NCBI GenBank assembly: GCA_030583665.1
Contig: CP129469.1
Coordinates: 1,240,001-1,304,000, forward strand
Origin: Candidatus Jettenia sp. AMX2
GTDB lineage: Bacteria; Planctomycetota; Brocadiia; Brocadiales; Brocadiaceae
DNA: 64,000 nucleotides
Reading direction: 5' to 3'
Below, in pieces: positions 29,170 to 34,027 of this stretch (position 1 is the stretch's first letter; each line of letters opens with the position of its first letter). A model generated the notes under the pieces. It saw nothing but the letters and a program-made list of their open reading frames with translations, searched no databases and had not been told where the DNA came from. Made by a program: the position numbers and the translations under genes.

Positions 29170-30528
29170 TTATTCCCGTTCTATTTCGAAAAGGGTAATT
29201 GGATACGATATCATTGTTCCCTCCCGGTTAATCTTGACATAACAGATGTCGCCAAATTGCTTTGTCTGGAGATAATGAATCAGGTCCATGACACTTTTCA
29301 TTTCTTTATCATCAACTGTTACAACAATATCTCCTACCATAAGTCCTGCTTTTTCTGCCGGGCTTTTGGGTACTATTTCCTGTATGACTAGCCTGTTATC
29401 GCCTGTTGTTTGAAGTTGTATTCCCAGATATATCCTTTTTTTATGCTCTTTGGTTACAGCGATTGCCCAGATGAAATCGGCTGGTTCTAAAGGGATTTCC
29501 GGCGAGAACAACGCTTCATCGGCCGTAGGCCTTCCTGCCTGAAATTCAGCCGTATAAATGGTGTAATAAGGTGAAGGGTCACGGCGAAACGCCCTTTTTG
29601 GAATACCCAAATCATAAATTATATGGCCATTTCCTGCAAAGGCCAGGAATTTTTTATCCTTTCCCTCGAGAGAGGATAAATAATCGGTAATCGTTTGCGC
29701 CATATATTCATCCCATAAGGATTGTATATCATGATATCTTTCAAAATCTGTTGCAACGTCTGCATGCTCCCCGATTGCCTTCCGGAGATAAACCTTGTGA
29801 AAGAAGACATCGGTATCAATTTCAGGTAACAGATTTCTCTCTTTATAGCTTAAATACTTCAGTCCTTTCTCGCGAACCATTTTCAGGAGATCTTTTGGTG
29901 CATTTAAGGCGATTACCGGGATTTTCTTTTCACGGGCAAAGTCAAGGATGTCCCTGTATAAATTGTAATCATATCCCCATTCCTTATCCCATCGCACATC
30001 CTCTAAGAATTTTTTTTCATCAATCTTACCTGCAACCCACAAATCCAAGACGGGTTGATAGGGACTGGTGAACATCTCCATGCCAATGGCTAACCTCTCG
30101 CCGAATTTTTCAAAACAAGCCTTGAGTACTTTTAACTGTACCTGATGGGCAGCCATATTAGCATGGATCTCTCCGACATAGAGTATCCGGGCGCAATCAA
30201 AAAAAGGGTTAAGATCAGAAAATTGCACCTTAATTCCTGTTGGAACGTGAACGATGTCGTCAAGTTCAACCTTTGAAGGGAAATGTTTTAATCTGTTTGC
30301 TTCCGGAAAGGCATGCAGGGGAAATAAGAAGTTTAGTCCTAAAAATGCCACGATTGTTTTTGAAACACCCTTTATCCAAAGGCGTTTTGCAACATTTTTC
30401 ACAACCTTGAAGGTATGATACCCGGTTGGTGTCAGTTCCGGAAGTATAAAATCCATTACTTTTTCGGAAGATGACGGTTTTCCCACGATCTCTCTCTTTG
30501 TCAAATCTTGTTCTCCTCTCGTATACAA
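29170..30528 (-). CDS. ChaN-like protein fused to a PDZ domain
   Basis: The 452-residue protein has an N-terminal hydrophobic segment (about residues 52-75). A ChaN domain (PF04187-type) follows: ILYVGEIHANMAAHQ, AIGMEMF, WDKEWGYDY and FAGNGHIIYDLGIP. A C-terminal PDZ domain follows: LGIQLQTTGDNRLVIQEI, SPAEKAGLMVGDIVVTVDD. ChaN of Campylobacter is a haem-binding lipoprotein, and related Tiki-type proteins are peptidases; GEIHAN and GNGHI carry the conserved polar residues. The fusion suggests an envelope protein that recognises protein termini. About 75 residues at the start lack homology. Confidence 0.8.
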   Translation of the reverse strand: MYTRGEQDLTKREIVGKPSSSEKVMDFILPELTPTGYHTFKVVKNVAKRLWIKGVSKTIVAFLGLNFLFPLHAFPEANRLKHFPSKVELDDIVHVPTGIKVQFSDLNPFFDCARILYVGEIHANMAAHQVQLKVLKACFEKFGERLAIGMEMFTSPYQPVLDLWVAGKIDEKKFLEDVRWDKEWGYDYNLYRDILDFAREKKIPVIALNAPKDLLKMVREKGLKYLSYKERNLLPEIDTDVFFHKVYLRKAIGEHADVATDFERYHDIQSLWDEYMAQTITDYLSSLEGKDKKFLAFAGNGHIIYDLGIPKRAFRRDPSPYYTIYTAEFQAGRPTADEALFSPEIPLEPADFIWAIAVTKEHKKRIYLGIQLQTTGDNRLVIQEIVPKSPAEKAGLMVGDIVVTVDDKEMKSVMDLIHYLQTKQFGDICYVKINREGTMISYPITLFEIERE

Positions 30529-30654
30529 TTTGCTGTTTAAAATAAAAACAATGTTAACGGGGGCAGTTAACCTGCCGGTAACGGTATAAGTTTACCATTG
30601 TTGATCATTATCCGTGTTGAGTAATTAATTAAAGTTCACGAAGGTATAGCTTAT

Positions 30655-30729
30655 AAGCTTCTGTTTTCCTGGGAAATACTGGCTAAATCTCTTGTGCTTA
30701 TTGCATTAAACATCGAAAACCTGACCTGT
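30655..30729. repeat. 75-bp diverged repeat, copy A
   Basis: Begins AAGCTTCTGTTTT and ends CGAAAACCTGACCTG. About two thirds or more of its positions match 37847-37920, which has the same ends. Confidence 0.6.
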
Positions 30730-31249
30730 TTGGCGATAATAAATACAAATACTATACTATTTTTCTGTAATTAATCAATTATTCATTTATATTCTTTACT
30801 TCACCCAGAATGACTTTGATGTTATGCAAAACAGAGTGAACCGCATCTGCTTTGGGATCGTTTGAAAAACCCTGGCTTTGAGTACAGGGAACAGAGACAA
30901 AAATCAATATGGTACCAAAAGGGACTATAATGAACAGCAAGAAGAAATAAAGCAATCTCGAAAAGTGAGCTATATCTTACGTATCATTTGATAGCAGCAT
31001 ACTTTACAATATTAACGGAAAGCCCGGGTGATTAAAAAAATGGCTTGACAGAAAGGGACTATAATTGTACAATGCTGAACAAAATTGTTAAATGGTGCTT
31101 GATTTAAGCAAAACAGTTATCAAACCAATCGTTACAATCAATCGGTTCAGGAACGAAGTCTCTTGGCGCGGCCTTTGGCCGCAACCAAATTAGAAATACT
31201 AAAATTTCCTCCCCCTTGATGGGGGAGGCCAGGTGGGGGTGAATAAGAA

Positions 31250-31333
31250 TTGAAAAAAGAACTACGGCATAGAGCAAAATTTTTCAGAAAAAGACCCACC
31301 GATGCAGAAAAAAGTCATAAGAAAAGCATTGAT
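31250..31333 (+). pseudogene. possible DUF559 endonuclease remnant
   Basis: A TTG-initiated frame reads LKKELRHRAKFFRKRPTDAE, like the N-terminus of DUF559 (Vsr-related) proteins, and then ends at a stop after KSHKKSID. No core nuclease region follows. It is embedded between GGGGGAGG-type repeats. Confidence 0.4.
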
Positions 31334-31509
31334 TGACCCACCCTCCCCTAACCCCTCCCATCGAGGGATGGGTATTTATCAAGCTTATGCATCTTGAAAA
31401 ACGAGCACAAAAAACAAGAAATTGATGGATTGTAGTACAGATTCCGGATACGAAAGAAAGGGGGATTTTAAAAGGCCAGAAAATACGGTTCTGTTTCGTT
31501 GAGAATGGA

Positions 31510-31603
31510 TAACCTGACAAGGGCAAACCCTGAGTGATCGGGGGACGCAAAGGAAAGGGTCTCTGATTGTGCACGAAGAAGAGCGTTAACCGCCGAAAGA
31601 TAG
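31510..31603 (+). ncRNA. GEMM-type (cyclic di-GMP-I) riboswitch
   Basis: The conserved core of the GEMM aptamer is present: AAGGGCAAACCC (from 31519), a short hairpin, then GGGGGACGCAAAGG (from 31540). A second helix region follows, ending in GCGTTAACCGCCGAAAG, comparable to the GGGTTACCG end of known aptamers. Aligned to the Vibrio aptamer, the base that distinguishes c-di-GMP from cGAMP binding (position 20) reads G, pointing to c-di-GMP. A terminator lies directly behind it and a secreted protease-type gene follows, as is usual for this class. Confidence 0.85.
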
Positions 31604-31653
31604 CCTTACTGCCGAAGATGTTTTAGAAAAGATCTTTGCAGTAAGGTTTTTTT
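31604..31653 (+). terminator. riboswitch expression-platform terminator
   Basis: CCTTACTGC (31604-31612) pairs perfectly with GCAGTAAGG (31638-31646), AAGAT with ATCTT inside, and seven Ts follow. It is placed so that ligand binding could decide transcription of the gene at 31747. Confidence 0.88.
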
Positions 31654-31746
31654 ATTTTAAGGCCACGGGTAAAACAACAAGTTCGGGTAAATCGGTAAGG
31701 TCGGGAAATGGGTAAGGAATTGAATTTCAGAAAAGGAGGGAGAAAA

Positions 31747-32529
31747 ATGAGAAGGAGATATGGAGTATACAGTCTTGTTGTATTGGTGTGTTTTTTTCTC
31801 TGGTGTGGGGTGGCATCAGCCCGGGAGGCAAAAGAAACCGATTATAGTTATTATTACGAGGAATCACTTATCTCGCTTACTCCGGGCAAGCGTCTTGTTG
31901 CAATAGAAGAAAGTGTCCCTAACCTCATGTCCGTTGTAAGAGAGCATAAGCTGGAGAAGGACCCCCTCAGTGAAAGAGAGGCATTAAAGAACAAGTCTCT
32001 GGGGGTTTACCGTATTCCCGCCATCAGGGATAAACAAACAGTGGTACCTGATATGAGGTCGGTAATGACCGCCCTGTCCAGGTCAGTAACAGGATAGTTT
32101 CAGCCCGTCTTTAAACAGGGAGAAGCACTATTCATCCCCGCCGAAGAGGTTATCGTCGGATTCAAAACAGCAACATCTCTTCCCGATGCACAAAAGTTTT
32201 TCGGCCCTCTCCTTCAGGACATGGGAATTCTGGATATCAGGGATCACCGGAAAGACACCTTCATCCTGACGATTGAAAATCCATCCAATGGCCGGGTGTT
32301 TGAAGTTGCAAAACGCCTCACAAAGCACGGTATGGTCTCTTTTGCGGAACCCAATTTTATTGTATTAACGCGATACGGCTTAGAAAATAGAGATTGTGGG
32401 ACTCAGATTTTAAAGAAATCATATTCGACAAACAAATCATCCTGCTTCACTATAATAAATACAACAAAAATACAGAATAAATATTCCAGTTCTTTTATAA
32501 AAGAGTTATGTATAAAATATATACAATAA
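31747..32529 (+). pseudogene. subtilase (S8) gene reduced to its propeptide, with in-frame TAG
   Basis: The ATG at 31747 follows GGAGGG by 6 bases. A signal peptide is clear (MRRRYGVYSLVVLVCFFLWC then VASA). The frame stops at TAG 32095-32097, but the same frame continues with FQPVFKQGEALFIPAEEVIV, ILDIRDHRKDTFILTIENP and MVSFAEPNFIV. These are the inhibitor/propeptide signatures that precede a subtilisin domain. After that, no Asp, His or Ser catalytic region appears; the frame ends at 32529 in sequence without homology. The protease itself is lost. It sits under the c-di-GMP riboswitch. Confidence 0.75.
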
Positions 32530-32602: not shown

Positions 32603-34027
32603 ATGAAAGACAAATACAAATATCTTATTGGTAACGAATGGCGGGAAAGTAAAGATGTGCTTGAGGTAAAGAACCCTTACGATAATGCTGTTGTAAGTAC
32701 CACATTTCTTGCAACGGAAAATGATATCGATGATGCAGTTCAGGCAGCCACCATCGCCTTTGAGGAAACAAGAAAATTGCCCGTTTTTAAAAGGGCCGAG
32801 ATTTTGGATAAGATAAAGGATGGTATTCGTGAACGAAGTGAGGAATTTGCGCAGATGATAACCATGGAGGCAGGCAAACCCATTAGTGACTCACGGGCTG
32901 AGGTTGAAAGGGCTATTGGAACATTCCAAACAGCATCAGAAGAATCAAAAAGAATGCTGGGAGAATATATTCCCTTAGACATCTCTGAACGATCAAAAAA
33001 CAGGAAGGGTATTCACAGACGGTTTCCCATTGGCCCGATTTTAGGGATTTCCCCCTTTAATTTTCCGCTTAATCTTATTGCTCACAAAGTAGCGCCAGCC
33101 ATTGCTGCCGGAAATCCCGTTATTATCAAACCATCAGCGAAAACCCCCATGACTGCACTGCTCCTGGGTGAGGTCATTTCCGGAGCAGGGTTACCTGCGG
33201 GAGGTTTTAGTGTATTTCCTTGCACAACAAACTTAGCCGAAAGATTGGTAGCGGATGAACGCCTCAGGATGTTAACTTTTACGGGCAGTGCAGCAGTAGG
33301 GTGGCGGCTTAAACAGATTGCCGGCAGGAAAAGGGTAACCTTGGAACTCGGTGGAAATGCAGGTGCAATTATCGATAGTGCTGAAAATTTAGATTACATT
33401 GTGAAACGGTGCATCTTAAGCGCTTTTTCCTTTAGCGGACAGGTTTGTATATCACTCCAGAGACTGTTTATTCAGGAAAAGATATATGATGATTTTATTT
33501 CCAACTTTACGGAGACCATAAAAACGTTAAAGACGGGTGACCCTAGGGATGAAGATACACAGCTTGGACCGATGATTGATGAACAGGCCGCCCAAAGAAT
33601 AGAATCATGGGTGCATGAGGCAACAGGAGAAGGAGCAATATTGCTGGCAGGCGGAAAACGCAAGGGTACTTTTTATGAATCAACAGTGATTGCAAACGCC
33701 ACTCCACAGATGAAGGTCAGCAGGGAAGAATTGTTTGCGCCTGTTGTAACAGTAACAAAACATGCCGCCTTTGAAGAGGCGGTGAAACGATTGAATGATT
33801 CTGTCTATGGGCTGCAGGCAAGTGTATTCACGAATAATATAAGGCATATTTTTTATGCATATGAGCATCTCGAAGCAGGGGGGGTGATTGTGAATGATGC
33901 GCCTTCTTTCAGAACAGACAATATGCCCTACGGAGGTGTTAAAGCGTCAGGGATCGGAAGAGAAGGTGTCCGGTATGCCCTGGAAGAGATGACAGAGTCT
34001 AAGATGCTAGTTCTCAATATCCCCTGA
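32603..34027 (+). CDS. NAD(P)-dependent aldehyde dehydrogenase
   Basis: The 474-residue protein starts at the ATG at 32603, with GGGAGAAG 8 bases upstream; the longer frame lacks such a site. ALDH superfamily residues are all present: the Asn of SPFNFPLNLIAHK, the Glu of VTLELGGNAG, and the catalytic Cys of FSGQVCISLQR. NMPYGGVKASGIGREG is near the end. The ISLQ context recalls phosphonate- or lactaldehyde-type dehydrogenases, but the substrate cannot be assigned. A short hairpin (34021-34044, CCCCTGAC/GTCAGGGG) overlaps the stop. Confidence 0.9.
   Translation: MKDKYKYLIGNEWRESKDVLEVKNPYDNAVVSTTFLATENDIDDAVQAATIAFEETRKLPVFKRAEILDKIKDGIRERSEEFAQMITMEAGKPISDSRAEVERAIGTFQTASEESKRMLGEYIPLDISERSKNRKGIHRRFPIGPILGISPFNFPLNLIAHKVAPAIAAGNPVIIKPSAKTPMTALLLGEVISGAGLPAGGFSVFPCTTNLAERLVADERLRMLTFTGSAAVGWRLKQIAGRKRVTLELGGNAGAIIDSAENLDYIVKRCILSAFSFSGQVCISLQRLFIQEKIYDDFISNFTETIKTLKTGDPRDEDTQLGPMIDEQAAQRIESWVHEATGEGAILLAGGKRKGTFYESTVIANATPQMKVSREELFAPVVTVTKHAAFEEAVKRLNDSVYGLQASVFTNNIRHIFYAYEHLEAGGVIVNDAPSFRTDNMPYGGVKASGIGREGVRYALEEMTESKMLVLNIP

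What the first reader, a model, noticed from the sequence alone, without database searches (positions are those of the whole stretch)
31510..31747. Intact c-di-GMP riboswitch and terminator in front of a ruined protease gene
The GEMM core motifs GGGCAAACC and GGACGCAAAG, a terminator with a perfect 9-bp stem, and a ribosome site are all preserved. The controlled gene keeps only a signal peptide and a subtilase propeptide. Either the switch is newly orphaned, or the secreted propeptide itself is useful, for example as a protease inhibitor.
Basis: partly seen in the sequence, partly recalled or inferred. Interest (0 to 1): 0.68.

Follow-up and report, generated by a model that had tools for sequence, protein, structure and literature searches.

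The report
c-di-GMP riboswitch before a broken protease
An ordinary, apparently working RNA switch for the bacterial signal c-di-GMP sits in front of the leftover first quarter of a secreted protease gene in an anammox bacterium; a genome rearrangement seems to have broken the gene and left the switch behind, in a bacterial family that carries up to about 56 such switches per genome.

Summary
Window 31513-31617 is a c-di-GMP-I (GEMM-I) aptamer (Rfam 59.4 bits, E 1.7e-11). Its 3' strand is also the 5' arm of an intrinsic terminator, so ligand binding should prevent termination: a transcriptional ON switch. It is one of 14 in this Brocadiaceae (anammox) genome. The same aptamer/terminator composite recurs in 20 of 33 family genomes, with zero control matches.

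The gene is ruined. It matches only the first ~208 codons of intact 816-1000 aa secreted S8 subtilases of relatives, has an in-frame TAG after codon 116, and loses homology at ~32370. The only recognisable prodomain (a weak hit) lies after the TAG, so "useful secreted propeptide" is not supported. "Newly orphaned" is: in the same-genus genome the ALDH and DUF362-ChaN genes are 228 bp apart with no switch; here they are 2.1 kb apart and the DUF362 half is gone. A diverged copy of promoter/switch/first codons lies 1.23 Mb away. Between the copies, aptamer core plus terminator arms changed at 1 of 82 sites against 53 of 496 in flanks (P=0.002): constrained for part of the time since duplication.

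New member of a known kind; the family-wide riboswitch expansion is more interesting than this locus. Expression and ligand binding are untested.

The parts
31045..31073 (+). promoter-like site TTGACA-17-TACAAT (11 of 12), the best upstream candidate
   Evidence: number of such sites in the region not above shuffles; conserved in the paralogous copy as TTGAAA-17-TATAGT
31162..31438 (.). ~277-bp interspersed repeat inserted between the promoter-like site and the riboswitch; absent from the paralogous copy
   Evidence: many further copies in this genome, full or partial, up to 95% identical
31513..31617 (+). c-di-GMP-I (GEMM-I) riboswitch aptamer; P2 31528-31543 with GUGA tetraloop, P3 from 31551 to 31610, short P1 31513-31516/31613-31617
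31603..31655 (+). intrinsic terminator: 5' arm AGCCUUACUGC(C)GAAGAU overlaps the aptamer's P3/P1 3' strand; 3' arm AUCUUUGCAGUAAGG; U run
31735..31739 (+). Shine-Dalgarno GGAGG
31747..32097 (+). remaining ORF of the truncated subtilase: signal peptide and N-terminal ~90 residues, ends at in-frame TAG 32095-32097
32098..32370 (+). in-frame continuation homologous to the rest of the subtilase N-terminal region, including the weak fervidolysin-type prodomain match (32143-32355); homology to intact genes ends at about 32370
30641..31777 (+). region with a paralogous copy at contig 2501239-2502132 (90-91% identical in the long segments; not all stretches are shared)
32603..34027 (+). aldehyde dehydrogenase gene, co-directional, with no predicted + strand terminator between it and the riboswitch terminator: possible read-through target
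29170..30567 (-). ChaN half of a DUF362-ChaN fusion gene whose N-terminal ~250 codons are missing here, marking the rearranged junction

Best explanation
A bona fide c-di-GMP-I riboswitch of the transcription-antitermination (ON) type whose original target, a secreted S8 subtilase gene, was truncated by a genome rearrangement. Without c-di-GMP the strand 31603-31621 pairs with 31632-31650 and RNA polymerase stops at the U run near 31655. With c-di-GMP the aptamer holds that strand in P3/P1 and transcription continues into the gene. (Shown: the aptamer, the overlap of aptamer and terminator, the truncation, the duplication, the changed junction. Inferred: ligand, direction of control, transcription.) The segment with promoter, switch and gene start exists in two diverged copies; no full subtilase of this family remains in the readable part of the genome. 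The RNA core stayed nearly unchanged while the flanks diverged by about 10%, so the switch is probably still able to work, but its product is now at most a 116-residue truncated secreted fragment.
For: Rfam hit, E 1.7e-11, parent model 20 bits over cut-off. Thirteen further c-di-GMP-I hits in the same genome and 11 GGDEF domains, so the ligand can plausibly be made. Mutually exclusive aptamer and terminator folds. The same overlapping terminator in most sibling switches, and as an exact pattern in 20 of 33 family genomes with 0 matches to the reversed control. Intact homologues of 816 and 1000 aa with Peptidase_S8 domains in two relatives. Homology ends at about residue 208 of the fragment and there is an in-frame TAG. 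Same-genus genome G022 has ALDH and DUF362-ChaN 228 bp apart with no switch; here the DUF362 part is missing and found nowhere else above 31% identity. Core against flank substitutions 1/82 against 53/496, Fisher P 0.0018. Other switches in the genome precede secreted or surface genes, including another secreted protein that looks like a subtilase (R1, 585 aa), type IV pilus genes and a GGDEF gene.
Against: No expression or binding data. The constraint test pools both copies: if only one copy were constrained, about 4.4 changes would be expected against 1 seen (P about 0.07, my Poisson estimate), so it does not prove that the window copy itself is still selected. Gene conversion among the similar switches could also keep the core alike, although loop changes (4 of 49) argue against wholesale conversion. 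The TAG rests on one assembly. The intact homologues in relatives have no switch directly upstream, so that an intact subtilase was ever under this switch is inferred from the fusion itself.
Confidence: 0.78

Rival explanations
1. The switch has been adopted by the next gene: c-di-GMP-dependent read-through runs through the 0.95-kb remnant into the co-directional aldehyde dehydrogenase gene (32603-34027).
For: Same strand, 74 bp from the end of the in-frame remnant, no predicted terminator in between; no strong promoter directly upstream of the ALDH (best 9 of 12, 174 bp upstream); switch core conserved since duplication.
Against: ALDH in 13 relatives has no such switch; its upstream regions there show no better promoters by the same crude scan, so lack of one here means little. 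About 500 nt of untranslated RNA after the TAG invites Rho termination. ALDH has no known tie to c-di-GMP control.
Confidence: 0.14
2. The encoded signal peptide plus ~90-residue fragment (or the prodomain by read-through of the TAG) is a functional secreted product, e.g. a protease inhibitor.
For: Start site, Shine-Dalgarno and signal peptide are intact; no frameshift in 208 homologous codons.
Against: Prodomain match is weak and lies after the TAG; no solved-structure relative; more unique residues than the nearest intact homologue (27 against 13) and the same number as the other, so no sign of extra constraint; the paralogous copy keeps only ten codons.
Confidence: 0.05
3. A chance likeness or dead relic: the RNA no longer binds or switches.
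For: Short P1, one non-standard P3 pair, a 277-bp repeat inserted upstream.
Against: E 1.7e-11; ligand-contact positions canonical; terminator arms intact; one change in 82 core sites since duplication. Siblings have equally short P1.
Confidence: 0.06

Closest known systems
c-di-GMP-I (GEMM-I) riboswitch, Rfam RF01051, with transcription-terminating ON platform (compare the pilM ON switch of Geobacter metallireducens, PMC9262584)
   Same: P1-P2-P3 aptamer, GNRA loop on P2, conserved joining strands, terminator made from the aptamer's 3' strand so that ligand prevents termination
   Different: The pilM switch responds to cGAMP; here position 20 is G (c-di-GMP type). The controlled gene is broken.
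c-di-GMP-I-GGC riboswitch, Rfam RF03167
   Same: Highest-scoring Rfam model for this stretch (59.4 bits against a threshold of 59)
   Different: The RF03167 consensus reads GGGACGCGAA; this RNA reads GGGGACGCAAAG, i.e. the usual A at the position stacked between the two ligand guanines (Vc2 A47), so it does not carry the base that I take to set the variant apart.
Secreted S8 subtilases of Brocadiaceae (Planctomycetia H5_AMX3, genome G018)
   Same: 54% and 48% identity over the N-terminal region, same signal peptide and pre-catalytic region
   Different: They are complete (816-1000 aa with Peptidase_S8 domain); the window keeps only about the first 208 codons, and no c-di-GMP-I switch stands directly before the intact genes.

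Membership tests
c-di-GMP-I riboswitch (RF01051) | Covariance-model score over gathering threshold | tested here: met
   55.1 bits against 35; E 1.7e-11 for the sister model
c-di-GMP-I riboswitch (RF01051) | Ligand-contact bases G20, A47, C92 (Vc2 numbering, from memory) | tested here: met
   GGGCAAACC gives G20; GACGCAAAG gives A47; CUGCCGAAG gives C at the 3' contact by alignment; numbering transfer is mine
c-di-GMP-I riboswitch (RF01051) | Expression platform downstream in the same transcript | tested here: met
   Overlapping terminator, mutually exclusive with the aptamer
c-di-GMP-I riboswitch (RF01051) | Binds c-di-GMP and changes gene expression | not testable with these tools
   needs in-line probing and transcription assays
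c-di-GMP-I-GGC (RF03167) | Covariance-model score over gathering threshold | tested here: met
   59.4 against 59
c-di-GMP-I-GGC (RF03167) | G at the A47-equivalent position (GACGCGAA consensus) | tested here: not met
   alignment: window has A; filed under the parent class
S8 subtilase gene | Catalytic Peptidase_S8 domain | tested here: not met
   Only PF22148 (weak) is found in the read-through frame; intact homologues have PF00082 at residues 487-765 and 488-764
S8 subtilase gene | Continuous reading frame | tested here: not met
   TAG at 32095-32097; homology ends ~32370

The most novel reading that the evidence does not exclude
Brocadiaceae have turned one stereotyped c-di-GMP-I aptamer/terminator composite into a genome-wide antitermination regulon (up to 55 matches over threshold in one genome). 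Duplications carry the switch with a gene start around the genome, so that switches without intact targets, like this one, are snapshots of how the regulon gains and loses members.
Probability: 0.4. Interest if true: 0.6.

Novelty: new member of a known kind. Interest (0 to 1): 0.36.

Why it matters
The locus itself is a clear small case of regulatory RNA outliving its gene. The surroundings matter more: anammox bacteria appear to be exceptionally rich in c-di-GMP-I riboswitches (all 33 Brocadiaceae genomes have them, 20-56 matches in each genome of genus g3, against 0-5 in 76 sampled genomes of other families of the phylum). I found no paper in the library that reports this. If it holds, c-di-GMP becomes a testable global switch for surface proteins, pili and secreted enzymes in the granule- and biofilm-forming anammox organisms.

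Tried and rejected
A structural relative of the fragment in the PDB: none. Naming the genome through genome contigs: only relatives were returned (Planctomycetia H5_AMX3, Candidatus Brocadia pituitae). Promoter scan: too few and too weak to place the transcription start. Relative-rate test on the fragment: inconclusive. The c-di-GMP-I-GGC label: rejected on the A47 position. Propeptide as inhibitor: rejected (see rivals). No structure prediction was run, as it would not separate the explanations. The region downstream of the paralogous copy is partly withheld (runs of N in L029), so its present target could not be read.

Full report
WHAT IS THERE. The stretch 31513-31617 (+) matches the c-di-GMP-I clan of Rfam: RF03167 at 59.4 bits, E 1.7e-11, and the parent family RF01051 at 55.1 bits against a gathering score of 35. 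Mapping the Rfam structure on the sequence gives 21 pairs, 20 of them standard. RF03167 wins narrowly, but its consensus has GACGCGAA where this RNA has GACGCAAA, so it has the ordinary A at the position that stacks between the two guanines of the ligand (Vc2 A47; numbering from memory). Position 20 is G, as in c-di-GMP rather than cGAMP sensors; PMC9262584 describes that position as a selectivity factor. I therefore file it as c-di-GMP-I, not as the GGC variant.

HOW IT SHOULD WORK. The 3' strand of the aptamer, AGCCUUACUGCCGAAG (ending at 31617), is at the same time the 5' arm of a terminator whose 3' arm is AUCUUUGCAGUAAGG followed by U's. Folded freely, the whole leader takes the terminator form (-46.3 kcal/mol); with the aptamer enforced it is -20.6, so the two exclude each other and the ligand must pay for the aptamer form or act during transcription. 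This is a standard ON design. It is not an accident of this copy: most siblings in this genome have the same arrangement, and the exact pattern CCTTACTGCCGAAGA-N(3,33)-TCTTTGCAGTAAGG occurs in 20 of 33 family genomes, up to 25 times in one, with no match for the reversed control pattern. Three siblings (R4, R5, R6) differ: their terminator has its own 5' arm further downstream that copies the aptamer strand.

THE GENE. ATG 31747 has a good Shine-Dalgarno. Its frame ends at TAG 32095-32097 after 116 codons. Read past the TAG, the frame is 54% and 48% identical to the N-terminal region of two complete subtilases (1000 and 816 aa, Peptidase_S8 at 487-765 and 488-764) in G010 (Planctomycetia H5_AMX3) and G018. 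Likeness ends at about 32370, well before the catalytic domain. Another remnant occurs in G004, Candidatus Brocadia pituitae. The remaining 29 family genomes besides this one have no match. The weak prodomain match (PF22148, E 0.0025, under its cut-off) lies after the TAG. The idea of a secreted inhibitor therefore has no support.

HOW IT WAS ORPHANED. In the same-genus genome G022 the order is ALDH, 228 bp, DUF362-ChaN fusion (713 aa), valyl-tRNA synthetase, with no c-di-GMP-I switch at the ALDH. Here the same genes flank a 2-kb insert, and the DUF362 half of the fusion is missing (homology starts at residue 251). A 40-bp piece from upstream of the DUF362 start survives at 30749-30788. So the switch and gene fragment sit at a rearranged junction. 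A second copy of the upstream region, switch, leader and first ten codons lies at 2501239-2502132 in the same contig, 90-91% identical; it too lacks the subtilase. A 277-bp interspersed repeat was inserted between the best promoter-like site and the switch in the window copy only.

IS IT STILL UNDER SELECTION. Comparing the two copies, the aptamer core plus terminator arms show 1 difference in 82 sites (an added C at the U run), loops 4 in 49, flanks 53 in 496; Fisher one-sided P 0.0018. The RNA was thus constrained for at least part of the time since duplication. Whether both copies were is not settled: one constrained copy alone would give about 4.4 expected changes (my Poisson estimate, P about 0.07).

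CONTEXT. The genome has 14 matches (13 over the cut-off) and 11 GGDEF domains. Downstream genes include another secreted protein that looks like a subtilase (R1; my reading of its N-terminus), PilM-type pilus genes (R4), pseudopilins (R5, R6), a GGDEF protein (R3) and large surface proteins (R11). All 33 family genomes have c-di-GMP-I matches; the genus of Candidatus Brocadia pituitae has 20-56 per genome (56 in G006 confirmed with more candidates scored, 55 over the cut-off). In 76 other genomes of the phylum the number is 0-5 (stricter filters). The library holds no paper linking Brocadia or anammox with c-di-GMP riboswitches as a subject; the number of 30 switches that I recall for Geobacter uraniireducens could not be checked here. 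In G006 a second case of the same kind was seen: a switch with the first 79 or so codons of a secreted 519-aa protein exists in a 99%-identical copy, and the copy breaks off into other sequence. Orphaning by duplication edges is thus not unique to the window.

VERDICT. The locus is a new member of a known kind; the family-wide expansion deserves more attention than the locus.

Noticed in passing
Genomes of genus g3, e.g. G006: Up to 55 c-di-GMP-I riboswitches over threshold in one 4.1-Mb genome, far more than in other Planctomycetota sampled (0-5).
   Followed up: partly
L004, L005, L006 (contig 2350278, 1629098, 1592469): Sibling switches whose terminator has a separate 5' arm that copies the aptamer's 3' strand; the logic may be different from the window's ON design. 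They precede pilus and pseudopilin genes.
   Followed up: partly
L012, contig 2068166-2068264 and downstream: Riboswitch-controlled secreted protein with a run of nine C at the end of the signal peptide that puts signal peptide and mature part in different frames: phase variation, decay or assembly error.
   Followed up: no
window 31162-31438: ~277-bp interspersed repeat with internal inverted repeats; many full or partial copies in the genome.
   Followed up: partly
window 29170-30567: ChaN-like gene that has lost the DUF362 half of the fusion found in G022.
   Followed up: yes
L074 and L076, upstream of the subtilase genes: In G010 and G004 the subtilase (or its remnant) follows genes that look like type VI secretion sheath components.
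   Followed up: no
G006 L142 and L144: 99%-identical duplicated switch plus gene start, one copy with a 519-aa gene, the other broken after about 79 codons.
   Followed up: yes
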